A program made the translations under genes and the position numbers. Below are positions 5,094 through 61,456 of a stretch of 64,000 nt of DNA, in pieces. The DNA lies in the IMG/VR virus record IMGVR_UViG_3300025576_000001, positions 1 through 64,000 of that record. One strand, 5' to 3'. The notes below the pieces were generated by a model that worked only from the letters and a program-made list of their open reading frames with translations, was not told the DNA's origin and did no database searches. Origin of the DNA: a virus. Within the stretch, counting starts at the first letter, position 1. The number at the start of each line of letters is the position of its first letter.

Positions 5094-5657
5094 GTGTCTG
5101 ACGACTCCCCTTTCCCCCCGAGCAAGCGCGGTAAGAACCCGCGCAGCCTGGGCAACCTGAGACCACGCCGCAAAGGAGATCCACCGCTCAACCCCACCGG
5201 CAGCAATGGACGCCAGCGCTCCGAGGTGATTGCCGCGTTTCTTGAAGAGAAGGACGACACGCCCATAGGCAAAGCGCTGATGGCGAAAGTCGGTTGTCCC
5301 GATGGGACGCGCATTCGCGGGCTGCTTTACCGAGAGTGGCTGGCAGGCATGGGCAAGAGCGACATGGCCCGCAAGACGCTGCTCGAACAGTACGGCGGGA
5401 AACCACGGGTGCAGATGGAGGTGTCCGGGCCGAACGGCGGTCCCATCAGCACCGATAACGTCTCAGCCATACTGTCACTCGAGGAGATGGCGGCGCGGTT
5501 TCTTCGGGCTACCCGCATCGCCCAGGAGGTGCTGGCGGCCGAGGCGGCTCCCCCGAAGGCCATCGACGCCATCGAGGTCGGGGCGCAGCCCGCAGCGCCG
5601 GCCGCTCCGCTGGCGCCCGGGCAGGTGCCGCTCGAGGCGATTCCGTGCCCCAGCTAG
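5094..5657 (+). CDS. Putative small terminase subunit (DUF5681-like)
   Basis: 187 residues directly upstream of, and overlapping, the large terminase. The basic N-terminus (PRRKGDPPLNPTGSNGRQRS) resembles the DUF5681 domain that often precedes phage packaging genes. A helical middle (GKSDMARKTLLEQYGGKP) and an Ala/Pro-rich tail follow. The small subunit recognises the packaging site and regulates the motor. Assignment rests mainly on position and the N-terminal motif. Confidence 0.6.
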   Translation: MSDDSPFPPSKRGKNPRSLGNLRPRRKGDPPLNPTGSNGRQRSEVIAAFLEEKDDTPIGKALMAKVGCPDGTRIRGLLYREWLAGMGKSDMARKTLLEQYGGKPRVQMEVSGPNGGPISTDNVSAILSLEEMAARFLRATRIAQEVLAAEAAPPKAIDAIEVGAQPAAPAAPLAPGQVPLEAIPCPS

Positions 5658-7126
5658 CCTCCGCCGAACTCCGCGACCTCGAAACGGGCTACCGCAGTTC
5701 AGACGACACCCTGATGCGGCTGGCCCGGCGGTCCATGAAGGCGTTTTTCAGCTTCACGATGCGGGACGAGCAGACCGGCGCCCCCGTCGAGTTCGCGCCG
5801 ATCCATGAAACCTGGCACCGACTCGCCGACCAGTATGACCGTCTCATGCTGTGGGCCGCCATGGAAAGTGGCAAGACACAAAGCCTGAGCGTGGCTCGTA
5901 CGCTCTGGGAGCTGGGCCGCGACCCGACGTTGCGTTTCGCCATCATCAGCAACACGAGCGGCATGGCGGTCAAGATCGCGAACCAGATCGGGAAGTACAT
6001 CACGCAGTCGGAGGAACTGCACCGGGTGTTCCCGCACCTGGAGCCGGACCCCACGATGCCGTGGAACTCCGAGCAGCTCACGGTCAAGCGGCCCACGCTG
6101 TCGAAAGACCCCTCGGTCAACACGCTCGGCATCGGCAGCAACACGCAGGGCGCCCGCATCGACCGCGCCGTCCTGGACGACGTGCTGAATCGCGAGAACA
6201 CCCGGACCCAGTACATGCGGGACGAGTCGCAGGACTGGTATCTGAAGACCATCCCGGGCCGTATGACGGAGCGCGGGCGCATCCTCGGCGTCGGCAACGC
6301 CTGGAACCCGGACGACCTCTACCACCGGCTCGTCAAGAACCCGCGCTGGAAGGGCTACAAGTTCCCGATCTTGAAGGCCGACGGCACGAGCGCCTGGCCG
6401 ACTGTCTGGCCGCTCGACCGCATCGAACGCCGCCGGCAAGAACTCGGGCCGATGGAATCCATGAGCCAGTTGATGTGCCAGCCCATCGACGACGCCATGT
6501 CGCGGTTCAAGCGCGAGTGGATCGAGACGTGCTTGCGGCGCGGCGAAGGCAAGGACGTCGTCTACGCGCTTCGCGGAATCCCGTTCGGCTGCAAGCTCTA
6601 CTGCGGGGTCGACCTGGCGGTGGGCAGGAAAGAACACCACGACCGAACGGCGTTCTTCGTGCTGCTCATCCACCCCAACGGAGACCGGCAGGTGCTGTGG
6701 GTCGAGAGTGGCCGCATGCTCGCGACCGACATCATGGAGAAGGTCAAGGACCTGTCGCTGCGATTCGGCGGCATCTTCGTGATCGAGAACGTGGCGGCCC
6801 AGGACTACTTGGTGCAAATCCTCCAGGGCAGCACCGCGATCCCGATCGTCCCGTTCGCGACCGGCAAGAACAAGGCGGACCCCACGTTCGGTCTCGAAGC
6901 GATGGCGGCTGAGTTCGCGGCCGGCAAGTGGATAATCCCGAACCGCGGCGGCGTCTGCCACCCGGAAGTCCAGGAGTGGGTCAACGAAATGCTCGGTTAC
7001 AACCCAGCGGCGCACTCGGGCGATAGATTGATGGCTGCGTGGTTCGCCAAGGAAGGCGAGCGTCTCAGCGTCCCGGTTGCGAAGCCATACTGCGGAACCG
7101 TTCGCCTCAAACTCAACCCCTTGTGA
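5645..7126 (+). CDS. terL: Terminase large subunit
   Basis: 493-residue packaging motor with ATPase and nuclease domains. The ATPase has a Walker A-like AAMESGKTQ at residues 71-79 and a Walker B-like AVLDD at 175-179. The RNase H-fold nuclease has acidic residues in GVDLAVG (D323), FVIENVAAQD (E381) and HSGDRLMAAW (D460). It cuts concatemers and drives DNA into the prohead through the portal. The start is a GTG at 5645 overlapping the small-subunit gene, with GAGG seven bases upstream. All key residues are present. Confidence 0.92.
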   Translation: MPQLASAELRDLETGYRSSDDTLMRLARRSMKAFFSFTMRDEQTGAPVEFAPIHETWHRLADQYDRLMLWAAMESGKTQSLSVARTLWELGRDPTLRFAIISNTSGMAVKIANQIGKYITQSEELHRVFPHLEPDPTMPWNSEQLTVKRPTLSKDPSVNTLGIGSNTQGARIDRAVLDDVLNRENTRTQYMRDESQDWYLKTIPGRMTERGRILGVGNAWNPDDLYHRLVKNPRWKGYKFPILKADGTSAWPTVWPLDRIERRRQELGPMESMSQLMCQPIDDAMSRFKREWIETCLRRGEGKDVVYALRGIPFGCKLYCGVDLAVGRKEHHDRTAFFVLLIHPNGDRQVLWVESGRMLATDIMEKVKDLSLRFGGIFVIENVAAQDYLVQILQGSTAIPIVPFATGKNKADPTFGLEAMAAEFAAGKWIIPNRGGVCHPEVQEWVNEMLGYNPAAHSGDRLMAAWFAKEGERLSVPVAKPYCGTVRLKLNPL

Positions 7127-36141: not shown

Positions 36142-36983
36142 TCTCCAACCCATTCGCTCGCGCGGGCTTCGAGCAAGGCGGCCAGCAGACCGGCAGCGGC
36201 GGGTCTTTCCACGTCGCCCGGGCCATCAGCGTGGGCGGCCAGATCATCCGCGTGGTATTCAGCAGCCCCCCAAAGGCCAAGAGTTCGGGCGCGCCAGACG
36301 ATGCCCTGAATGCCGCCAACTACCAAGTCTCGGTCACGACCGGAACCGGCGATACTCCGCAGTCCATCGCGACCTTCGCGACCGTGACGCTCTGGCCAGC
36401 CTTCGGGCTGCGTGCGGCTGGCGAGGCGTCAATTGACCTCCAGGTAGACCGTCCCCTCATCGTCGGCATGAGCTACACAGTGACGGCCTCGCACGCCTTG
36501 GTGGCGGCCGACGGGACGCCGATCGGCTCGCCCTACGGTTGGACGTTCAGCGGCTCCGCCAGGCCCATCCGCAAGCGGCAACAGCGCCGCGTGATCGGGC
36601 TGGTGGACTTCGCCAGCGACCCCTTCACGGGCGGGATTGCGGTCGACAAGTCGGGCGACTGGGCCAGCCAGGAGGGCGCGTCGGGAACCCGCAAGCGTAT
36701 CTGGCGGATCGCCCTCACGCCGTTCGGCGCGTTCTCGTTCCTGTCGAACTTCGGTCTCAAATACGACATCAAGAAGCCCGGAACCCTCAGCATCCTGGGC
36801 AGCCTGCGCACCGAGCTGAAACAGCAACTCCTGCAACAGCCCGACGTGAAGGACGCCAGTTCGTCAGTCACGATGGACCAGCGCGGGTTTCTTACCCTCA
36901 CGATCAATGCGCAGACCACGACGGGTCAGAAGCTCTCTGAGACCGTGCAGGCAACCCCCAGCGGAATGGTAACGACCCAATGA
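36138..36983 (+). CDS. Baseplate protein with gp25-like C-terminal domain
   Basis: 281 residues. The N-terminal half is Ig-like (ISVGGQIIRVVFSSPPKAKS, MSYTVTASHALVAADGTPIG). The C-terminal half (KRIWRIALTPFGAFSFLSNF, LGSLRTELKQQLLQQPDVKD) resembles gp25/gpW baseplate wedge proteins, including the end LTINAQTTTGQKLSETVQ. It lies just before the J-like gene, as expected. Confidence 0.6.
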   Translation: MISNPFARAGFEQGGQQTGSGGSFHVARAISVGGQIIRVVFSSPPKAKSSGAPDDALNAANYQVSVTTGTGDTPQSIATFATVTLWPAFGLRAAGEASIDLQVDRPLIVGMSYTVTASHALVAADGTPIGSPYGWTFSGSARPIRKRQQRRVIGLVDFASDPFTGGIAVDKSGDWASQEGASGTRKRIWRIALTPFGAFSFLSNFGLKYDIKKPGTLSILGSLRTELKQQLLQQPDVKDASSSVTMDQRGFLTLTINAQTTTGQKLSETVQATPSGMVTTQ

Positions 36984-38089
36984 GCGCCATGTTCGTTTCA
37001 CGCGCCGATTTGTTCTCCGTTGGTCGCGCCGCCATCGCGGGCACGCCTGGCATCCGCATCAACCCAGCCGTCATCGACATTCCTGGCAGCGATCTCAACC
37101 TCGCGGTCGGCGTCGATGCCGTCCTGGGCGAAGAGGTGTCGATGCGGTCCGCCTATGCGATGCGGGGCGCGTTCGCGGAGCTGGCGCGCGGCAATCAGCT
37201 CGACCGGGTCATCTACGACCGCTCGGGACTCCTGCGGTTCGGTGCCACACCGTCCAGCGTGGACCCGGTGTTGAGCCGACCGACCTCCACGAATGGCGCG
37301 GGAACCTACAAGGCCGGGTCGGTCGTCCAGACGGCAGATGGCACGCAGTTTGGCCTTGACAACGACGCCGTGTTCGGAGTTGCAGACCTGAGCGTGACGG
37401 TCTCGGCGACGGCCGTGACCTCGGGCGCCGATACCAATGTTGCGCCGGGCACCGTGACCGGCTTCTCGACTGCGCCCTTCGACTCGACCCTGACGGTCAC
37501 GAACCCAGCGAGCGCGGCCGGCGGGACCGACGCCGAGAGCGACATCGCGTTCCTGGGGCGATACCGCGGCTACTTCCCGACGTTGTCGAGAGGCACGATG
37601 GGTGCCATCGAGTACGCGGCCACGCAGGTGCCGGGCGTCGCGGTCGCGACCGCAACCGAGATCGTGAACCCCAACAGCGGCTACCCCGCATCCATCGTGC
37701 AGTTGGTGATCGGGGACGCAAGCGGCAACTCCACCAGCGACATGGTGACGGCCGTGGCCAACATGCTGCTCACCTACCGCGCGGGGGGAATTTTCGTTCA
37801 AGTTTTGACCGGCTCGGTATTCCAGCAGACCGTCACGTGGTCGCTGGCGTTCGAGACTGGAGTCAACGAAGCCCTCGCCCAGTCGCGCGTTCGAGCGGTG
37901 TCCGTGGCGGCCAGCCAGTTCCTCGCGCCGGGCGCCACGCTCTACAAGTCGACCCTCATCAGCGCGGCCAAGAAAGTGCCGGGCGTCATCATCAGCGACA
38001 GCTCGCTCGTCTATCCCTTGGGCGACGTCGAAACCACCAGCCCGGGCCAGATGATCCGAGTGGCATCAACGGCGGTGACTTTTCAATGA
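36980..38089 (+). CDS. Baseplate J-like protein
   Basis: 369 residues. The J-like features are TNPASAAGGTDAESDIAFLG followed by RYRGYFPTLSRGTMGAIEYA, then the end with ISAAKKVPGVIISDSSLVYP. It is one of the wedge proteins that form the outer baseplate. Its stop overlaps the next ATG. Confidence 0.75.
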   Translation: MSAMFVSRADLFSVGRAAIAGTPGIRINPAVIDIPGSDLNLAVGVDAVLGEEVSMRSAYAMRGAFAELARGNQLDRVIYDRSGLLRFGATPSSVDPVLSRPTSTNGAGTYKAGSVVQTADGTQFGLDNDAVFGVADLSVTVSATAVTSGADTNVAPGTVTGFSTAPFDSTLTVTNPASAAGGTDAESDIAFLGRYRGYFPTLSRGTMGAIEYAATQVPGVAVATATEIVNPNSGYPASIVQLVIGDASGNSTSDMVTAVANMLLTYRAGGIFVQVLTGSVFQQTVTWSLAFETGVNEALAQSRVRAVSVAASQFLAPGATLYKSTLISAAKKVPGVIISDSSLVYPLGDVETTSPGQMIRVASTAVTFQ

Positions 38090-40512
38090 GCGATTCCGGG
38101 CCACTTACGCAGGCGCAAGCGTTGGATGTATTACGCCGCACCTGCGACCGTGCGTGGCTCGACGCCATGCTCGCCCAGCCCGACGGCGCCGCCATCATCG
38201 CCAGCAAGCTCGCGGCGTTCGAGGCCGCCAGTCTCGCGGTGACGGCGCAGGCAAACGCCACCATGATCTCGACGGCGCCGACTGGTCGTCCGGGCGTCTG
38301 CACTCTCGCGCTTCAGCGCTCGGACACCTCGGCGAGCGCCACGATCCCAAAGGGCTATACGTTCATCACCAACCTGGGCGTCGAGCTGACGGTCGCGTGC
38401 GATGTGCAGGTTGCAGTCGGGCAAGCGACGGTGGCGCTGCCACTGGTCACGACTCGCCAGATCGATCTGGTCAACACGGCCGCGAATGCGTTCGACGACA
38501 TCCTGGACCCCGGCAACTACCCGGACGCGGTGCTGGGAACGGCGAACCCTCCGGTGTTCGTCAGCCGCTCTCCCCGCGCCCTCGTCGCGAACCGCAGCAG
38601 CAACGACGTGAGCTGGCTCGACCTCACGAACCCACTGCTGCCCGTCGTGCTCGCGACCGTCACCGTGGGCGTAGGCCCACCCGGCGTCGCTTTCTCGCCG
38701 GACGGCACCCGCGCCCTCGTCGCGAATTTCGGCAGCAACGACGTTAGTTGGCTCGACCTCACGAACCCACTGCTGCCCGTCGTGCTCGCGACCGTCACCG
38801 TGGGCTCAGGCCCGATCGGCGTCGCTATCTCGCCGGACGGCACCCGCGCCCTCGTCGCGAACCGCAGCAGCAACGACGTGAGCTGGCTCGACCTCACGAA
38901 CCCACTGCTGCCCGTCGTGCTCGCGACCGTCACCGTGGGCGTAAACCCATTCGGCGTCGCTATCTCGCCGGACAGCACCCGCGCCCTCGTCGCGAATTAC
39001 GGCAGCAACGACGTGAGCTGGCTCGACCTCACGAACCCACTGCTGCCCGTCGTGCTCGCGACCGTCACCGTGGGCTCAGGCCCGGTCGGAGTCGCTATCT
39101 CGCCGGACGGCACCCGCGCCCTCGTCCCGAATTACGGCAGCGCCAACGTGAGCTGGCTCGACCTCACGAACCCACTGCTGCCCGTCGTGCTCGCGACCGT
39201 CACCGTGGGCGTAGGCCCATACGGCGTCGCTATCTCGCCGGACGGCACCCGCGCCCTCGTCCCGAATTACGGCAGCGCCAACGTGAGCTGGCTCGACCTC
39301 ACGAACCCACTGCTGCCCGTCGTGCTCGCGACCGTCACCGTGGGCGTAAACCCGATCGGCGTCGCTATCTCGCCGGACGGCGAGCGCGCCCTCGTCGCGA
39401 ATTACAGCAGCAACGACGTGAGCTGGCTCGACCTCACGAACCCACTGCTGCCCGTCGTGCTCGCGACCGTCACCGTGGGCACAGGCCCATACGGCGTCGC
39501 TATCTCGCCGACGGCGAGCGCGGATGTGTTCGGCGATTTCGTCCGTTGCCTCACCTACGTCTCCTCAACTCCCATCACAGGCGCGTCGAGCGACTGGCTG
39601 AGCGCCCTTGGCAATGAGCGCGGCTGCATTCGCCAGGACGGCGAAGACGGCGAAGCGTACCGAGCCCGTGTCCGCATGATACCCGACGCCGTGAGTCCGC
39701 TCGCCATCGCGCGGGCCGTGGACGCGACCGCAACGGCACTGCCTGAGCGCTGGCTGGCCGAGCCTTTCAACGACGGCGCGGATCCCAATGTGAAGCTCGC
39801 AGCGAATCTCGGGTTCTTCGACGGCTTCTTCTGCGATAGCGACTTCTGCGACGACCCACTCGGCGTGTCGCTGGCCGACAAGCAACCGGTGGCGAACCTC
39901 GAATGCTCGGGCATTCGCGAGAGTCGCGCCTACGTGCGGGTCGACCTCGTGGGGCAATTGCAAGAGCCCGACGGTCTTGTCCTGTACTGTGACGATGGTT
40001 TCTGCGACGACCCGCAGTGGGGCTACCCGGATGTCCACACCCACCCGGTCATCCAGGGAGCCGAGCAGGCGCTGCTGCAACAGATGCAACTCAAGGTGGC
40101 GGGCGGCGTGAACTTCGATGTCTACCTGGAGAACTCGGAGACGCTCGTACAGCAGGGCACCTTGAGCGGCACCACGAGCGCAGGGGGTACGCCGGTCATC
40201 ACGCTTACGCCAGTGGCCGGAACTGCCTGGTATTTGCGCGAGGGTCTGCTGACCGCCGACATGGGCAACCGCCACTGGGCAGTCACGGGACAGGGCATCG
40301 CGGTACGGCTCACGCTCGACGATGGGTCCACGCTGCAAACCCCCTGGGCGCAGGGCGTGGTGTCGCTGCGCTCCTATGAGCTGGAGGCGCTCGGCTACCG
40401 AGGCCAGCGCGTGACCAGCATCGAGTGCTTGGGGCTCACGCTCTACGACCTCGAACCGCCCTACAGCATGAATTTGATCGGTAGTTTCACCGTGAATACG
40501 GCTACACTCTAG
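38086..40512 (+). CDS. Baseplate protein with inserted seven-repeat beta-propeller
   Basis: 808 residues from ATG 38086. The N-terminal part is a baseplate module. Residues about 164-478 are seven repeats of 45 residues, each with RALVAN, NDVSWLDLTNPLLPVVLATV and GVAISPDGT, the YVTN/NHL-like pattern of a seven-bladed propeller. The C-terminal part returns to baseplate-like sequence, with two Cys/Asp motifs (FCDSDFCDDPLG, YCDDGFCDDPQWG) and a strand-rich end. The propeller probably acts as a binding domain on the baseplate. Confidence 0.75.
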   Translation: MSDSGPLTQAQALDVLRRTCDRAWLDAMLAQPDGAAIIASKLAAFEAASLAVTAQANATMISTAPTGRPGVCTLALQRSDTSASATIPKGYTFITNLGVELTVACDVQVAVGQATVALPLVTTRQIDLVNTAANAFDDILDPGNYPDAVLGTANPPVFVSRSPRALVANRSSNDVSWLDLTNPLLPVVLATVTVGVGPPGVAFSPDGTRALVANFGSNDVSWLDLTNPLLPVVLATVTVGSGPIGVAISPDGTRALVANRSSNDVSWLDLTNPLLPVVLATVTVGVNPFGVAISPDSTRALVANYGSNDVSWLDLTNPLLPVVLATVTVGSGPVGVAISPDGTRALVPNYGSANVSWLDLTNPLLPVVLATVTVGVGPYGVAISPDGTRALVPNYGSANVSWLDLTNPLLPVVLATVTVGVNPIGVAISPDGERALVANYSSNDVSWLDLTNPLLPVVLATVTVGTGPYGVAISPTASADVFGDFVRCLTYVSSTPITGASSDWLSALGNERGCIRQDGEDGEAYRARVRMIPDAVSPLAIARAVDATATALPERWLAEPFNDGADPNVKLAANLGFFDGFFCDSDFCDDPLGVSLADKQPVANLECSGIRESRAYVRVDLVGQLQEPDGLVLYCDDGFCDDPQWGYPDVHTHPVIQGAEQALLQQMQLKVAGGVNFDVYLENSETLVQQGTLSGTTSAGGTPVITLTPVAGTAWYLREGLLTADMGNRHWAVTGQGIAVRLTLDDGSTLQTPWAQGVVSLRSYELEALGYRGQRVTSIECLGLTLYDLEPPYSMNLIGSFTVNTATL
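38575..39519 (+). repeat. 7 x 135-bp in-frame tandem repeat
   Basis: Units start at 38575, 38710, 38845, 38980, 39115, 39250 and 39385. The 60-odd bases encoding WLDLTNPLLPVVLATVTVG are nearly identical between units, while codons for the residue pairs after VANx and VGxxP vary. The near-identity at DNA level suggests recent expansion or gene conversion. Confidence 0.9.
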
Positions 40513-52998: not shown

Positions 52999-53120
52999 AC
53001 CTTGACATCCTCCGCCCCCTAAAGGAGGCGGATTCCCGGCTTCACAACCGAGCTTTTCTGCTTCAACTCTGACTGCACCGCATCCCGAAGAACACGATGG
53101 CTAACACCAGATCCGCAGAC
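52982..53120 (-). ncRNA. Candidate omega RNA from the TnpB element right end
   Basis: In TnpB elements the 3' end of tnpB plus the right end encodes a guide RNA. Here the hairpin TCCGCC (53011-53016) / GGCGGA (53027-53032) with inner CCT/AGG contains the tnpB stop at 53019-53021. The end motif AGGATGTCAA follows at about 53002-53011 (minus strand). The 20 bases beyond it would be the guide, derived from the 3' end of the HTH gene. Extent toward tnpB is estimated. Confidence 0.4.
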
Positions 53121-54230
53121 TTCACCCTTTCGGGCTACGTCGAGTCCCGACGCAAGGATATTCTTTGCTGCATTCTCGTCTCGGTCGTGCTGTACCTGGC
53201 AGCTTGGGCAAGTCCAGTTGCGCACGTCGAGAGGCAGGAGCTCGACGACGTGGCCACAAGCAGAGCATGTCTTGCTGCTGGGATAGAAGCGGTCGACCTT
53301 GATCAACTCCCGGCCGTACCAGGCGCACTTGTACGCGAGGACGGTCAGGAGCATGCGCCAAGCAGCGTCCGAGATTACTCGGGCGAGGCAGTGGTTGCGG
53401 ACCATTCCAGCGACGTTCAAATCCTCGACTACGATCACTTGGTTCTCGCGAACGATTCTTGTCGAGAGCTTTTGCATTTGGTCGCGGCGACGGTCTGCCA
53501 CCTTGGCATGGAGACGAGCGAGCTTGATTCGAGCTTTGTACCTGTTGCGGCTTCCTTTCTGTTTGCGGGCGAGCGCACGGGAGAGGCGCCGCTTGCGCTT
53601 CAACTCTCGGGCGTCGTGCTTGAGGTTGGGAATCTTCTCCCCCGTGGAGAGCGTGGCCAGGGCGTTGATGCCCAGGTCGATGCCAACGGCGGTCTTGAGC
53701 TTGGGCAGGTGCTTGACGGCCTTGTCCTCGCAGAGCAGGGACACGTGCCAGCGCTGGGCGGCGTCCAGCGATACCGAAGCACTGGACGGCTCCGCCCCCT
53801 CTGGCAACGGGCGGCTCCAGCGGATGTCGAGGGGCGCCTCCATCTTGGCCAAGGTGAGCTTGCCAGCGGCGAAGCGGAACCCGCTGCGGGTGAACTCGGC
53901 CGAGCCGCCCGCGCGCTTCTTCTTGAAGCTGGGGTACTTCGCACGCTTGGCGAAGAAATTGGAGTAGGCGGTTTGCAGATGCCGCAAGGTCTGCTGGACG
54001 GGGACGCTCGACACTTCGTTCAGGAAGGCAAGCTCGGGCTCCTTCTTCCAGCCCGTGAGCGCGGTGCTCTGGGCCGCGTACCCGATGGACTTTTTGCCCG
54101 AGGTCCACGCTTCACTGCGCTCGTGCAGGGCGCGGTTGTAGACGAGACGGCAACACCCGATGGTCCGACGAAGCAAGACCTCTTGCTCGGCGGTCGGGTA
54201 GAACCGGTACTTGAATCCTCTCAACGGCAC
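53019..54230 (-). CDS. tnpB: TnpB RNA-guided nuclease
   Basis: 403 residues. The N-terminal part has FKYRFYPTAEQEVLL, CCRLVYNRAL and the TnpB-type NFFAKRAKYPSFKKK. The RuvC residues are present: GIDLGINALAT (D185), VVEDLNVAGM (E269) and HDRDENAAKN (D351). The zinc ribbon CSACG...CPSC (Cys 322, 325, 341, 344) is intact. TnpB cuts DNA next to a TAM using a guide RNA from its own right end, which keeps the element in place. All catalytic residues are intact, so the protein should be active. GTG start at 54230. Confidence 0.92.
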   Translation of the reverse strand: MPLRGFKYRFYPTAEQEVLLRRTIGCCRLVYNRALHERSEAWTSGKKSIGYAAQSTALTGWKKEPELAFLNEVSSVPVQQTLRHLQTAYSNFFAKRAKYPSFKKKRAGGSAEFTRSGFRFAAGKLTLAKMEAPLDIRWSRPLPEGAEPSSASVSLDAAQRWHVSLLCEDKAVKHLPKLKTAVGIDLGINALATLSTGEKIPNLKHDARELKRKRRLSRALARKQKGSRNRYKARIKLARLHAKVADRRRDQMQKLSTRIVRENQVIVVEDLNVAGMVRNHCLARVISDAAWRMLLTVLAYKCAWYGRELIKVDRFYPSSKTCSACGHVVELLPLDVRNWTCPSCQVQHDRDENAAKNILASGLDVARKGEVCGSGVSHRVLRDAVQSELKQKSSVVKPGIRLL

Positions 54231-56838: not shown

Positions 56839-57172
56839 TTAGCGCTTGGGGCTGGCAGCCATTGCCATCGGCGCTCTCGGAGCGGGCGAACACCCATCAG
56901 ATCCAAGAGCATGAACTTCCGGCGGGGCGAGCAGCGTCGTGGCGATCGTGTTCACTTTTGTAGAGATGGCGTTGGCGGTGGCATCAAGATTACTGAGACG
57001 AGCTTCTATATTGGTCAGTCGCCCCTCGATACCGGCCAGCCTTGCTGAAAGCCTATCCTCGCAAGCCTGAAGTGAAGCCACCAGATGTTCTTTTTCCGTC
57101 TGCGGCATTAGGACATTTTGAAGACGCGCTGCGCGGGTGTCAAGAAAGAACTTCTGATTCCTAAGTTCTGTC
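56839..57172 (-). pseudogene. C-terminal part of an interrupted coiled-coil gene
   Basis: Reads on the minus strand from TELRNQKFFLDTRAARLQNV through EKEHLVASLQACEDRLSARL and IEGRLTNIEARLSNLDATAN to a stop at 56839. The N-terminal part lies at 61412-61456, beyond the transposon. Joined, with the shared ATAGG counted once, the two parts make one in-frame gene of 127 residues. An internal ATG at 57108 might still allow an 89-residue product. Confidence 0.7.
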
Positions 57173-57177
57173 CCTAT
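57173..57177 (+). repeat. Left target-site duplication (CCTAT)
   Basis: CCTAT here and at 61407-61411 flank the transposon. Taken as eight bases, the copies are GTCCCTAT (57170-57177) and GCACCTAT (61404-61411), identical at 6 of 8, the size usual for IS1595 elements. Confidence 0.5.
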
Positions 57178-57209
57178 TCGGCCCATCCCTTGCAATGGCG
57201 ATTATGCAC

Positions 57210-57238
57210 TTGACAACACCAGTTGCGAGGCGTAGTCT
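57210..57238 (+). promoter_or_regulatory. Putative transposase promoter TTGACA-N17-TAGTCT
   Basis: TTGACA at 57210-57215, 17 bases, TAGTCT at 57233-57238. The ATG of the transposase is six bases further on, so the transcript would be nearly leaderless. It probably also drives the R-M gene. Confidence 0.5.
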
Positions 57239-57244
57239 TGAGGC

Positions 57245-58222
57245 ATGACGACGAAGAACACAGACGGCAGCGACCTGACGCTGATGTCGGTGATGACGCG
57301 CTTTTCTACGGAAGAGGCAGCGCGTGACTACTTCGAGAGCATCCGCTGGCCCGAAGGCCCGACCTGCCCGCACTGTGGAAACGCTGACCAGGCACGCATC
57401 TACGCCCTCACTCCCGACGCTGGCTCCAAGGTCCGGCCGGGCCTCCGTAAGTGTGGCGACTGCCGCGACACCTTCACCGTGACCGTCGGAACCGTGATGG
57501 AGGATTCACACATCCCGTTGAACAAGTGGCTGATCGCCTTCTACATGATGTGTGCCAGCAAGACCCAAGTCTCGGCGTTGCAGCTCATGCGCCAGCTTGA
57601 GATCGGCTCCTACCACACCGCGCTTTTCCTCTGCCACCGCATCCGGTTCGCTCTCGCCGAGTTCTTCCCGACGCAGAAACTTGCTGGCACGGTTGAGGCT
57701 GATGAAACTTACCTGGGTGGTAAGATGCGCGGACGTGGACGAGGCTACGTGAAGAACAAGACCGCAGTCGTCTCGCTCGTCGAGCGTGATGGGAACGTGC
57801 GCTCGCGCGTGATCGGCTCCGACACCGTGACGGGCAAGGCGATCACGACCCTCCTGAAAGAGCACGTTGCCGAGACGGCCCATCTGAACACGGACGAGTC
57901 ACCCCTTTACACCCAGGTCGGAACTCACTTCGCATCCCACGACACCGTGAACCACAGCAAAGAAGAGTACGCCCGCAAGGACAAGGACACCGACCGCCTG
58001 GCGACCACCAACACGGTCGAGGGCTTCTTCGGAAACGCCAAGCGCAGCATCGATGGCACCCACCACAACATCAGCCGTCGGCGCACGGGCCTCTACATGG
58101 CCGAGATCGATCACAAGTACAACACGCGCAAGATGACCGATGGTGAGCGCACCGTGGTCGGCATCCGGCGCATGGAAGGGAAGCGGCTCTTTGCTCGCTC
58201 CCCGAAGCGGAAGGTCGGATAG
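57245..58222 (+). CDS. IS1595-family transposase
   Basis: 325 residues. An N-terminal zinc ribbon (CPHCG...CGDC at 41-73) precedes the catalytic domain. The acidic residues are in TVEADETYLGGKMRGRGRGY (D153), LNTDESPLY (D217) and NTVEGFFGNAKRSI (E259), followed by GTHHNISRRR. This is the ISXO2-like layout. The stop is directly followed by the ATG of the methylase gene, with no gap, so the two are likely one transcript. It catalyses cut or copy and insertion of the element. Confidence 0.9.
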   Translation: MTTKNTDGSDLTLMSVMTRFSTEEAARDYFESIRWPEGPTCPHCGNADQARIYALTPDAGSKVRPGLRKCGDCRDTFTVTVGTVMEDSHIPLNKWLIAFYMMCASKTQVSALQLMRQLEIGSYHTALFLCHRIRFALAEFFPTQKLAGTVEADETYLGGKMRGRGRGYVKNKTAVVSLVERDGNVRSRVIGSDTVTGKAITTLLKEHVAETAHLNTDESPLYTQVGTHFASHDTVNHSKEEYARKDKDTDRLATTNTVEGFFGNAKRSIDGTHHNISRRRTGLYMAEIDHKYNTRKMTDGERTVVGIRRMEGKRLFARSPKRKVG

Positions 58223-60634
58223 ATGGCAAAGCCAGCGCGCATAGCAGAGGTGCGAGCCGAGCACCTATTGACTGAGTTGCTCACGTCTCAGGGCTGGAAT
58301 GTAGAACATCCCCCGAAGGGTGAACTACTGCGCCAGGGGGAATACAGGGACCACCCTCACCTACTGGACATCTTCAAAGGCAAGAGCAAGTCGTCCGGCG
58401 GTGGCGACGGAATGCCCGAGGCTTTGCTTGTTGACGAGAATCTGCAACCACTGGCCGTGGTGGAGGCCAAGGGTTCCGCCAAGGATCTTCCCAAAGCCAT
58501 CGACGAGGTAACAAACAAGTACGGTACGTGGTGCGTGGAGGCCGGATACACTCCCATCGCAATCGCGCTTGCCGGAACCACCGAGACGTCATTTGTGTTG
58601 CAGGTGTTCAAGTGGTCCAAAAACAAATGGATCACCGTCACCTATGACGGCAACCCTATCAGTTGGATTCCCAACCGCACCGACCTGGAACACTTGCGGG
58701 CACCCAACACACTAGCCGAATTGCGCCCGTCCGTTCCTCCGGCAGCGGTACTCGCCACCCGTGCCGACGAGATCAACCGCCTGCTACGTGAGGCCAATAT
58801 CACCGATGCCCAGCGCCCGGCGATCGTTGGATCAATTATGCTGGCACTGTGGAAATCAAAAGGCCAAATTCGGCGCGATCCGGAGTACATCCTTGGGGAC
58901 ATCAACGAAGCGTCTTCCAGGGCATTTTGGACAGCCGAGAAAGCCAGCATCGCGGACAGCCTACGGGTGCCCATCGCGAACAAGGATCTGGCCAAGAGGG
59001 CGGTGCGCATCGTTTCCATCTTGGAGCGACTTGGCGTAACTGTCCTGAGCGCAGAAACGGACTACCTGGGCCAACTGTACGAGACTTTCTTCACTTACGT
59101 CGGAGGTAACACAATAGGACAGATTTTCACTCCAAGGCACATGACCGCTTTCATGGCGGAAATCGCGGACGTGCAGCGCGATGACGATGTGCTTGACCCG
59201 GCGTGTGGGACAGGGGGCTTTCTGATCGCTGCCATGAACCGCGTGCAGCGACGTGGCAAGTTGTCACGGGTGCAGATGATCGAAATTGTGAAGAAGCACT
59301 TGGTAGGCTTTGAAGTTGAGCCCACCACGGCGGCTCTCTGCATTGCCAATATGGTACTGCGTGGGGACGGCTCCACGCGGGTACATCCGGTTAGTTGTTT
59401 CACGTCGAAGAAGTTCGAGGTTGGTCAAGCCAATATCGTCTTGATGAACCCTCCATTTCCTCACGAGTCGACCGACAGACCTCCGGAGGAGTTCATTGCA
59501 AGGGCACTGGAAGGACTGCGAACCCGTGGCCTATTCGTGGCAATCGTTCCGCAGTCCCTCTTGGTCAAGCGTGAGAAGCAGCAGTGGCGCGACGAGATCC
59601 TGCAAAAGCATACACTTAGCGGAGTGATCACCTTGCCGGATGAACTCTTTCAACCGTTTGCGGCTGCCACCACGGCCATCCTAATCTTGGAAAAGGGCAT
59701 ACCGCACCCCAATGATCGACGTGTCTTTTTTGCCAGGGTGGAGAACGACGGATTCAAATTGAAGAAGGGTGTGCGCATTCCACGTGAGGGAGACGAATTG
59801 CCAACTATACTTGATGCCTATCGTAACAAAAAGACAATCCCTGGCATTAGCGGACTTTCAGTGCTTGATCGAGATCGGAGTTTCGCGCCGGGCGCCTATA
59901 TCCCTGCGCGGCCTTTGAGTGAAGCGGAAGTGACTGCGGGAGTTCTCGCACTCATCCGCAACCGCACCGCGTTCACGACCTTACACGCTGCCGAGATCGT
60001 TAATCTCAGACGTGAGGCCAGTTCGTACCGTGCGATGAAGAAGTCGCCCATCCCTAGCGCGCCCACTAGCAAAACGATCGGCGGCTACTTCGATATTTTC
60101 TACGGGCAGAAAAGCCTTCACAACAAGGAGAAGTTGCTATTGGGCACATCCCTCGTGATCTCGTCAAGCGGCGTGGACAATGGTTGCTACGGTTTCTTTG
60201 ATCTCGAAACCTTGATTGAGCCTCCGTTTGTCACCGTTCCTAGCACCGGAAGCATTGCGGTGGCTCATGTTCAAGAATTGCCGTGTGGGGTTACGGATGA
60301 CTGTTTGATCATGCTACCCAAAAAGGACGTGCCGCACGAGCTTCTCTATGTTGCAGCCGCAGTCATTCGGTCAGAGGCATGGAGGTTTAGCTACGGCAGG
60401 AAGGCGACTCCGGATCGCATATCTGGCTTCCCGTTACCTGTCGGCAAGGAGTTGATTGAGTGTGTGCGCGTTTACATGGAACGAGCGGCACAGGTGGAAC
60501 ACCTTGCACTAGAACATGCAGAGGATGCAATTGACGAACAGATAGCACGCAAACGACGGTTACAGGAGAAGGAGAATCCCGGAAGGCTCATTGGTGGAGA
60601 TATGTTAGAGAAAAGGCTGGCGGAGCTGGAATAG
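58223..60634 (+). CDS. Single-chain restriction-modification enzyme (nuclease-methylase-specificity)
   Basis: 803 residues. The N-terminal part has a PD-(D/E)xK-like site (MPEALLV...LAVVEAKG, E66, E81, K83) with HLLDIFKGKS before it. The methylase part has FTPRHMTAFMAEI, DPACGTGGFLIAAM (324-337) and VLMNPPFPHE (NPPF at 408-411), the N6-adenine type. The last 230 residues (TSKTIGGYFDIFYGQKSLHN, SLVISSSGVDNGCYGFF) resemble the target-recognition part of type I specificity subunits. It should both cut and methylate its site. More AT-rich than phage genes. Confidence 0.8.
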   Translation: MAKPARIAEVRAEHLLTELLTSQGWNVEHPPKGELLRQGEYRDHPHLLDIFKGKSKSSGGGDGMPEALLVDENLQPLAVVEAKGSAKDLPKAIDEVTNKYGTWCVEAGYTPIAIALAGTTETSFVLQVFKWSKNKWITVTYDGNPISWIPNRTDLEHLRAPNTLAELRPSVPPAAVLATRADEINRLLREANITDAQRPAIVGSIMLALWKSKGQIRRDPEYILGDINEASSRAFWTAEKASIADSLRVPIANKDLAKRAVRIVSILERLGVTVLSAETDYLGQLYETFFTYVGGNTIGQIFTPRHMTAFMAEIADVQRDDDVLDPACGTGGFLIAAMNRVQRRGKLSRVQMIEIVKKHLVGFEVEPTTAALCIANMVLRGDGSTRVHPVSCFTSKKFEVGQANIVLMNPPFPHESTDRPPEEFIARALEGLRTRGLFVAIVPQSLLVKREKQQWRDEILQKHTLSGVITLPDELFQPFAAATTAILILEKGIPHPNDRRVFFARVENDGFKLKKGVRIPREGDELPTILDAYRNKKTIPGISGLSVLDRDRSFAPGAYIPARPLSEAEVTAGVLALIRNRTAFTTLHAAEIVNLRREASSYRAMKKSPIPSAPTSKTIGGYFDIFYGQKSLHNKEKLLLGTSLVISSSGVDNGCYGFFDLETLIEPPFVTVPSTGSIAVAHVQELPCGVTDDCLIMLPKKDVPHELLYVAAAVIRSEAWRFSYGRKATPDRISGFPLPVGKELIECVRVYMERAAQVEHLALEHAEDAIDEQIARKRRLQEKENPGRLIGGDMLEKRLAELE

Positions 60635-60643
60635 GCTACGACG

Positions 60644-60922
60644 ATGCCTTTAGTCGGTTTTTTGTGGGATCCGGAAGCCCTGGAACGATTAGCCGAGATT
60701 CCCGGCAAACAGAGAGCGCAGATCATAAAGAAAGCGCGGGCCTTAATAATAGATTCTCATCCTCCTGGGACAAAGAAATTGTCTGGCATGGAAGGAGAAG
60801 ACGGAGTACCGCTTTACCGCCAGCGTTCAGGTGATTATCGCATTCTCTACGAAGTCAGAACAAAACCACATACGATCATTGTCATTCGAGACGTTGACGA
60901 CCGAAAGGATGTGTACAGGTGA
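60644..60922 (+). CDS. RelE/ParE-family toxin
   Basis: 92 residues with the RelE-type fold pattern: FLWDPEALERLAEIPGKQRA, then the core KKLSGMEGEDGVPLYRQRSG followed by DYRILYEVR, and the end TIIVIRDVDDRKDVYR. Toxins of this family cut mRNA at the ribosome or target gyrase. It follows the R-M gene by nine bases and overlaps the antitoxin gene. Confidence 0.85.
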   Translation: MPLVGFLWDPEALERLAEIPGKQRAQIIKKARALIIDSHPPGTKKLSGMEGEDGVPLYRQRSGDYRILYEVRTKPHTIIVIRDVDDRKDVYR

Positions 60923-61086
60923 AGCCAGGGAAGTCCAAGGGCAAGAAGGAACAGGACCAGGAGATGCGGATGCCGGCCAAGGAGTTTGACCGCATCATGG
61001 GGCGAGTCATGGGAGCACCGGAAACGCCGCGCAAACCGGAGGCCCTGGAGGACAAGCCGAAGGACCAGGAGGGTCAGAAGAAGTAA
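60919..61086 (+). CDS. Antitoxin for the RelE-like toxin
   Basis: GTG at 60919 overlaps the toxin stop; 55 residues. The core QEMRMPAKEFDRIMGRVMG is typical of small antitoxins paired with RelE-like toxins; the rest is Lys/Glu-rich and probably disordered. Toxin-first order as in HigBA-type pairs. It likely binds the toxin and may also repress the pair. Confidence 0.7.
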   Translation: MKPGKSKGKKEQDQEMRMPAKEFDRIMGRVMGAPETPRKPEALEDKPKDQEGQKK

Positions 61087-61131
61087 CGCTGACCGTCAGC
61101 TAGGTATGAGGGCTGATTTTCCCCCAGTGTT

Positions 61132-61365
61132 GTGAAGTGCATACTCGCCGAACGCTCCGACGTGCTCGCCGTAGAGCTGCGCAAGCGTGAACGCGAGGTG
61201 ATAGCCGAATACCTTGGAAAACACCGTGGCCACGTCGGTGAGACGGCTACGGCGCTTGGCCTGACCAGGCGTGCCCTGGAATACAAGATGGAAGCCCACG
61301 GCCTGCGGGAAGAAGCCGCCAAGGCCCGCGAGCAAGCCGGCATCGGCGGTCCCCGGACGGCATAA
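61132..61365 (+). CDS. Fis-type helix-turn-helix protein
   Basis: 77 residues from GTG 61132 (GTG 61162 possible). The segment REREVIAEYLGKHRGHVGET, then ATALGLTRRALEYKMEAHGL, is the Fis-type HTH at the end of sigma54 activators. Here it stands alone. It is the last gene of the transposon. It may regulate the passenger genes. Confidence 0.6.
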   Translation: MKCILAERSDVLAVELRKREREVIAEYLGKHRGHVGETATALGLTRRALEYKMEAHGLREEAAKAREQAGIGGPRTA

Positions 61366-61406
61366 CTGCGCAATTATCTTCGCATGATAGGGAAATGAGT
61401 TACGCA

Positions 61407-61411
61407 CCTAT
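61407..61411 (+). repeat. Right target-site duplication (CCTAT)
   Basis: Matches CCTAT at 57173-57177. The sequence beyond it belongs to the interrupted minus-strand gene. Confidence 0.5.
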
Positions 61412-61456
61412 ATTCGCAATGAAGTTGCGCTTCTGCCATTCGGTCCAGTCGGTCAT
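61412..61456 (-). pseudogene. N-terminal part of the interrupted coiled-coil gene
   Basis: ATG at 61456 (minus) with TGGAGG seven bases upstream. Encodes MTDWTEWQKRNFIAN, then joins in frame to the part at 56839-57172 after ATAGG. In its present state it ends in a TAA within the transposon end at 61400-61402. Confidence 0.65.

What the first reader, a model, noticed from the sequence alone, without database searches (positions are those of the whole stretch)
56839..61456. IS1595-type transposon with R-M, toxin-antitoxin and HTH cargo splits a coiled-coil gene
Seen: a minus-strand N-terminal piece (61412-61456) and C-terminal piece (56839-57172) rejoin in frame into a 127-residue protein if 57178-61411 is taken out, with CCTAT on both sides. 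Between them lie a transposase, a nuclease-methylase fusion, a RelE-like toxin, its antitoxin and a Fis-type HTH gene, all in one direction with almost no gaps. Known: IS1595 elements can carry passenger genes and make 8-bp duplications. Inferred: the element moves a complete self-maintaining defence and addiction set, here caught inside a phage.
Basis: partly seen in the sequence, partly recalled or inferred. Interest (0 to 1): 0.85.

Follow-up and report, generated by a model that had tools for sequence, protein, structure and literature searches.

The report
Phage transposon carrying antitoxin-tailed restriction enzyme
A small jumping element in an uncultured bacterial virus carries a DNA-cutting defence enzyme whose tail matches the antidote for the RNA-cutting toxin encoded next to it, so that losing or disabling the defence enzyme would probably unleash the toxin.

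Summary
It is a 3,953-bp IS1595-family element at 57197-61149, bounded by 24-bp inverted repeats shared with sister copies in other viral contigs. Four sisters have perfect 8-bp target duplications; this copy has none. The Fis-type HTH gene lies outside. The "rejoined 127-aa protein" is unsupported: the 5-bp repeat is expected by chance, and neither flank has a detected relative.

Cargo: a single-chain restriction-methylation-specificity protein, a RelE toxin and a small ORF.

The new point is the enzyme's last ~45 residues. The same tail ends at least four other, distantly related R-M types, always on the protein directly upstream of RelE (14 loci). All five homologues without RelE lack it. 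It is homologous (E=1.3e-9) to a stand-alone 68-aa ORF preceding RelE in another phage. So the R-M enzyme most likely carries the antitoxin and RelE guards it, functionally like PrrC/EcoprrI or CreTA. A related phage keeps R-M and RelE (95-98% aa) after losing most of the transposase.

IS1595 passenger genes and toxins guarding R-M are known separately; I found no report of this fusion. Neutralisation and guarding are inferred, not tested.

The parts
57197..57220 (+). left terminal inverted repeat GGCGATTATGCACTTGACAACACC
   Evidence: 0 mismatches to the family repeat; two hits in 64 kb against 0.01 expected
57245..58222 (+). IS1595-family transposase, 325 aa, zinc ribbon plus ISXO2-like DDE domain; D153, D217, E259 invariant in 8 copies
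   Evidence: PF12762 4.9e-31, PF12760 3.7e-13, NF033547 2.1e-51; alignment A3
58223..60634 (+). single-chain R-M-S protein, 803 aa: N-terminal PD-(D/E)xK-like nuclease (P65...E81-x-K83), N6-adenine methylase (DPACGTGG 325-332, NPPF 409-412), C-terminal recognition region (about 615-740)
   Evidence: PF02384 1.7e-34; invariant motif residues in 9 homologues; model similar to BsaXI, BpuSI and type I M subunits
60488..60631 (+). C-terminal antitoxin-like tail of the R-M protein (48 codons used in the profile)
   Evidence: shared by 14 R-M or S proteins upstream of RelE or a RelE remnant, absent in 5 homologues without RelE; profile hits the stand-alone ORF of L042 at 1.3e-9
60644..60922 (+). RelE-family mRNA interferase toxin, 92 aa, start 9 bp behind the R-M stop
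   Evidence: phrog_1213 3e-10, PF05016; profile to M. tuberculosis RelE2 6.9e-7; RelE fold, top match 1wmi_A
60919..61086 (+). small ORF, 55 aa, overlapping the RelE stop; conserved ELRM..FDxIM motif, function unknown (accessory or second antitoxin)
   Evidence: present in several sister copies, fused to RelE in L004-L006, absent in L036 and L040
61126..61149 (-). right terminal inverted repeat (GGCGAGTATGCACTTCACAACACT on the minus strand)
   Evidence: 3 mismatches to the left repeat
61132..61365 (+). Fis-type HTH ORF: NOT cargo; its first six codons lie in the right repeat, the rest is flanking DNA, probably truncated by the insertion
   Evidence: PF02954 2.7e-9; absent from sister copies

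Best explanation
The feature is an IS1595-family transposon (57197-61149) that moves between phages. It carries a single-chain restriction-modification enzyme physically joined to an antitoxin segment, followed by a RelE mRNA-interferase gene that starts 9 bp after it. The R-M enzyme would methylate the carrier's DNA and cut unmodified incoming DNA, while its C-terminal tail holds RelE inactive. If the R-M enzyme is lost, degraded or inhibited, RelE is freed and stops translation. That both addicts the cell or phage to the element and punishes anti-restriction. Shown by sequence: the element, its ends, the cargo, the homology of the tail to a stand-alone antitoxin-like ORF, and the strict tail/RelE association. 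Inferred: toxin neutralisation, release and guarding.
For: Shared 24-bp ends and 8-bp duplications in sister copies. IS1595 transposase. R-M motifs and fold. RelE sequence and fold. The same tail on window-type R-M proteins and on four only distantly related ones (two single chains, two separate S proteins), always directly before RelE: 14 of 14 with RelE or its remnant against 0 of 5 without. Tail profile finds a stand-alone 68-aa ORF upstream of RelE in L042 at 1.3e-9, best decoy 0.48. RelE starts 3-9 bp after the R-M stop in the ten copies inspected, with no internal start for the tail. R-M (dN/dS 0.046) and RelE (98% aa) kept in L029 after loss of most of the transposase and the left repeat.
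Against: No biochemical test. The tail matches no Pfam or PDB antitoxin. The small ORF behind RelE is conserved in most transposon copies and could be the antitoxin. In L072 and L076 RelE is decayed, so the unit is not always kept. The number of independent tail gains is small, and the association test ignores kinship.
Confidence: 0.72

Rival explanations
1. Ordinary independent cargo: a self-sufficient R-M enzyme plus a separate RelE toxin neutralised by the downstream small ORF. The R-M tail is a leftover from an ancestral antitoxin gene fused by stop-codon loss and does nothing now.
For: The small ORF is conserved in most transposon copies and overlaps the RelE stop. Toxin-first orders such as HigBA and BrnTA are known (own knowledge).
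Against: The small ORF is absent in L036 and L040 and fused to RelE in L004-L006, while the tail is always present with RelE. The tail is conserved across strongly diverged R-M proteins.
Confidence: 0.15
2. The tail is the antitoxin, but only for co-production: fusion guarantees antitoxin supply and addiction to the element, with no sensing of anti-restriction or of R-M damage.
For: Operon order and tight spacing. Post-segregational killing by toxin-antitoxin modules is established (own knowledge).
Against: Does not by itself explain why the antitoxin is fused to the R-M or S protein each time rather than kept as a separate small gene, as in L042.
Confidence: 0.35
3. One reading: a 4.2-kb element from 57178 to 61411, including the HTH gene, that split a coiled-coil gene.
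For: The in-frame join gives an open 127-codon frame, and ATG 61456 follows GGAGG.
Against: Sister copies end at the inverted repeats and none carries the HTH gene. Shared 5-mers with in-frame joins are expected by chance. No intact relative of the coiled-coil gene was found.
Confidence: 0.05

Closest known systems
IS1595-family elements and other insertion sequences with passenger genes ('transporter ISs'; PMC3129680, citing Siguier et al. 2009)
   Same: Transposase family, terminal inverted repeats, 8-bp duplications in sister copies, passenger genes between transposase and end
   Different: Passengers here are an R-M enzyme with an antitoxin-like tail and RelE; carriers found are phages; the original 2009 paper is not held, so its passenger list could not be compared
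PrrC/EcoprrI (PMC2610378, PMC12707154)
   Same: An RNase toxin linked to, and by inference silenced by, an R-M enzyme
   Different: RelE mRNA interferase instead of the PrrC anticodon nuclease; silencing proposed through a covalent tail on the R-M or S protein
CreTA guards of CRISPR-Cas (PMC10097628, PMC9458426)
   Same: A toxin that makes loss of a defence system costly
   Different: Protein toxin and protein tail here; CreTA uses RNA toxin and RNA antitoxin with the Cascade complex
Type IIB/IIG enzymes BsaXI (8w0p), BpuSI (3s1s), DrdV (7lo5)
   Same: Nuclease and adenine methylase in one chain (in BsaXI the recognition subunit is separate); predicted fold similar
   Different: Low identity (11-17% in the fold search); extra antitoxin-like tail; specificity and activity unknown
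RelBE toxin-antitoxin systems (1wmi, 3g5o, E. coli RelBE)
   Same: Toxin family and fold; antitoxin position upstream of the toxin
   Different: No DNA-binding antitoxin; the toxin-binding segment is proposed to sit on an R-M protein

Membership tests
IS1595 family | ISXO2-like DDE transposase with N-terminal zinc ribbon | tested here: met
   PF12762 and PF12760 above cut-off, NF033547 174.8 bits against cut-off 75
IS1595 family | terminal inverted repeats | tested here: met
   24-bp repeats at both ends, shared with sister copies
IS1595 family | 8-bp target duplication | tested here: inconclusive
   perfect in L003, L006, L013, L026; absent around the window copy
Type II toxin-antitoxin, RelE toxin | RelE fold and family sequence | tested here: met
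Type II toxin-antitoxin, RelE toxin | cognate antitoxin that binds the toxin | not testable with these tools
   homology and association of the tail only
Type IIG-like R-M enzyme | nuclease, methylase and target recognition in one polypeptide | tested here: met
   motifs and model
Type IIG-like R-M enzyme | cleavage and methylation activity | not testable with these tools
   bench assay needed
PrrC family | PrrC ABC-ATPase/anticodon nuclease protein | tested here: not met
   the toxin is RelE; no PrrC-like protein in the cargo
R-M guardian (functional class) | toxin released when the R-M enzyme is inhibited | not testable with these tools
   inferred only

The most novel reading that the evidence does not exclude
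A transposon-borne, exchangeable guard module: a RelE toxin whose antitoxin is grafted onto the C-terminus of whatever restriction-modification protein precedes it, so that the R-M enzyme is itself the antitoxin and its inhibition by an invading phage triggers translation arrest. It is spread between phages, which use it against competitors.
Probability: 0.45. Interest if true: 0.85.

Novelty: new variant of a known kind. Interest (0 to 1): 0.68.

Why it matters
If true, it is a direct fusion between innate DNA defence and a type II antitoxin, turning R-M loss or inhibition into a cell-level alarm. The same tail and RelE sit behind several diverged R-M proteins, which suggests a portable 'guard' part that evolution attaches to different defences. 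It also gives a simple, testable reason why a transposon would carry R-M through phage genomes, and why a phage would keep the cargo after the transposase has decayed.

Tried and rejected
HTH gene as cargo: rejected; outside the right repeat and absent from sister copies. Empty site: sought with both flanking ORFs in viral contigs, nothing found. Copies in named phages or plasmids: none close. Phage-specificity of the element: the terminal repeat occurs in 0 of 398 and the tail in 0 of 349 sampled Pseudomonadota genomes (positive control 4 of 4), but by my rough estimate the density in viral contigs predicts less than one repeat hit in that sample, so no claim of phage-only is made. Tail against Pfam and PDB: no match. 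Separate translation of the tail from an internal start: no conserved Shine-Dalgarno site. Relatives of the L002 R-M protein in bacterial genomes: none at the strict cut-off. Papers on an R-M/antitoxin fusion: none found in the open library, which lacks most subscription journals.

Full report
WHAT WAS CHECKED. The window is bases 1-64000 of a 76,216-bp viral record that holds one copy of the unit. The record is a tailed phage: terminase large subunit at 5645-7126 and baseplate wedge at 36980-38089.

ELEMENT AND ENDS. The transposase belongs to the IS1595 family (PF12762 4.9e-31; NF033547 2.1e-51). Five viral contigs encode 66-69% identical transposases followed by an R-M protein, RelE and, mostly, the small ORF. 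In all of them the unit is bounded by the 24-bp repeat GGCGATTATGCACTTGACRACACC or a close variant. In the window the repeats lie at 57197-57220 and 61126-61149 (0 and 3 mismatches), so the element is 57197-61149. An exact scan for the repeat core found 19 stretches of viral contigs. Perfect 8-bp duplications flank L003 (AGTTGATC), L006 (GATGTTTT), L013 (AATCCATT) and L026 (TAAGTTTT); the window copy, L002, L004 and L019 have none. Seven carrier records tested each hold one left and one right repeat, that is one copy. G+C of the element is 56.5% against 64.0% outside.

The HTH gene begins inside the right repeat and continues outside; no sister copy has it. The CCTAT join is one of 18 shared 5-mers, 3 of which join in frame. 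Neither flanking ORF has a relative in the viral collection. A split gene is therefore neither shown nor excluded. The missing 8-bp duplication suggests that one flank was rearranged after insertion (inference).

THE R-M PROTEIN. It has an N-terminal nuclease motif, N6-adenine methylase motifs and a C-terminal recognition region. The model (mean pLDDT 74) is closest to a Vibrio MTase (7eew), type IIB BsaXI, type I M subunits and type IIG BpuSI. Homologues of 40-68% identity were collected from viral contigs and two bacterial genomes. Other elements of the family carry only distantly related R-M proteins in the same slot: L002 and L026 as single chains, L038 and L051 as methylase plus separate S gene. 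Outside the tail they share only methylase-level similarity, about 25-29% to the window protein, plus a 31% match of the L038 S protein to its recognition region.

THE TAIL. Every R-M or S protein directly upstream of RelE ends in the same segment of about 45 residues, consensus AEDAxDxxIAxxRLxEIxxxPxxLVxGDxLxxRLAxL. Of 19 R-M loci, 14 with RelE or a RelE remnant (window, L002-L006, L026, L029, L036, L038, L040, L051, L072, L076) have the tail; L009 (same place as L068), L069, L077, L078 and L081, without RelE, lack it. A Fisher test, ignoring kinship, gives 8.6e-5 for all and 3.3e-4 for window-type enzymes alone. A profile built only from R-M tails finds, among 9,002 ORFs, a 68-aa ORF directly upstream of RelE in phage contig L042 at E=1.3e-9; the next non-R-M hit is 0.26 and the best reversed decoy 0.48. 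In L041 a more distant RelE is preceded by what looks like a ribbon-helix-helix antitoxin with a comparable C-terminus (by eye). So the tail sits where an antitoxin's toxin-binding part would be. It matches no Pfam or PDB entry, so its neutralising role is inferred.

THE TOXIN AND THE SMALL ORF. RelE is confirmed by sequence and fold. Its start lies 3-9 bp behind the R-M stop in the ten copies inspected, and no internal start with a conserved Shine-Dalgarno site could make the tail separately. The natural order is therefore antitoxin-bearing R-M first, toxin second. The small ORF behind RelE has a conserved ELRM..FDxIM motif, is fused to RelE in L004-L006 and is missing in L036 and L040. It may be an accessory or a second antitoxin.

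RETENTION AFTER LOSS OF THE TRANSPOSASE. L029 comes from a related phage (terminase region 73% identical DNA). The first 271 transposase codons and the left repeat are gone, while R-M (95% aa, dN/dS 0.046) and RelE (98% aa) are kept. DNA identity jumps from about 0.83 to 0.96 at window position about 59663 and stays high through RelE, so this part has probably been exchanged recently. L072 and L076 show the opposite fate: RelE decayed, and in L072 R-M also has a stop codon.

MECHANISM. Shown: element, cargo, shared ends, tail homology and association, purifying selection on R-M. Inferred: the tail binds and silences RelE; loss or inhibition of R-M frees it; the carrier gains exclusion of competing DNA and dependence on the element. 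This works like PrrC/EcoprrI, where a linked type I enzyme silences an RNase that anti-restriction releases (PMC2610378; PMC12707154 calls PrrC and PARIS 'RM guardian systems'), and like CreTA for CRISPR (PMC10097628). It is not a member of the PrrC family. IS elements with passenger genes were described before ('transporter ISs', PMC3129680); the combination found here was not met in the papers searched.

LIMITS. All viral relatives are metagenomic contigs predicted to be viral. The number of independent tail-gain events is small. The set without RelE is two bacterial genomes plus three viral contigs. Nothing was tested at the bench.

Noticed in passing
53019-54230 (minus strand): A TnpB/IS605 OrfB protein (403 aa) with intact-looking domains lies 3 kb from the element; a possible second transposon in the same phage.
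   Followed up: no
L013:1204-5866: Same transposase family and ends with a perfect 8-bp duplication (AATCCATT) but entirely different cargo of unknown function.
   Followed up: partly
L019:2128-5335: A 3.2-kb element of the same family whose cargo is an Xre-like HTH gene and a 345-aa protein of unknown function.
   Followed up: no
L077:28-3460: A more distant IS1595 transposase (44%) directly before a window-type R-M gene without tail and without RelE: IS1595 and R-M seem to have joined more than once.
   Followed up: partly
L065:6001-9607: Another IS1595 transposase followed by a PIN-like ORF and a DNA-methylase-like ORF (by eye), possibly a further defence-carrying element.
   Followed up: no
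L036:982-6276: R-M plus RelE with no transposase or repeats found, behind a zonula-occludens-toxin-like gene typical of filamentous phages and a serine resolvase (by eye).
   Followed up: no
L017:6371-6432: Two right-end repeats 38 bp apart, perhaps a nested or solo-end remnant.
   Followed up: no
L005:5474-7964: The element sits at the 5' side of a tape-measure gene, and the contig stops 1 bp after its right end, suggesting an insertion polymorphic in the population.
   Followed up: no
59663-60922 against L029: Sharp rise of DNA identity within the R-M gene between two phages, a sign of recent exchange of the 3' part of R-M plus RelE.
   Followed up: partly
37837-40512: An 891-aa ORF with many near-identical repeats (SNDVSWLDLTNPLLPVVLATVTVG...), beta-propeller-like, within the phage tail region.
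   Followed up: no
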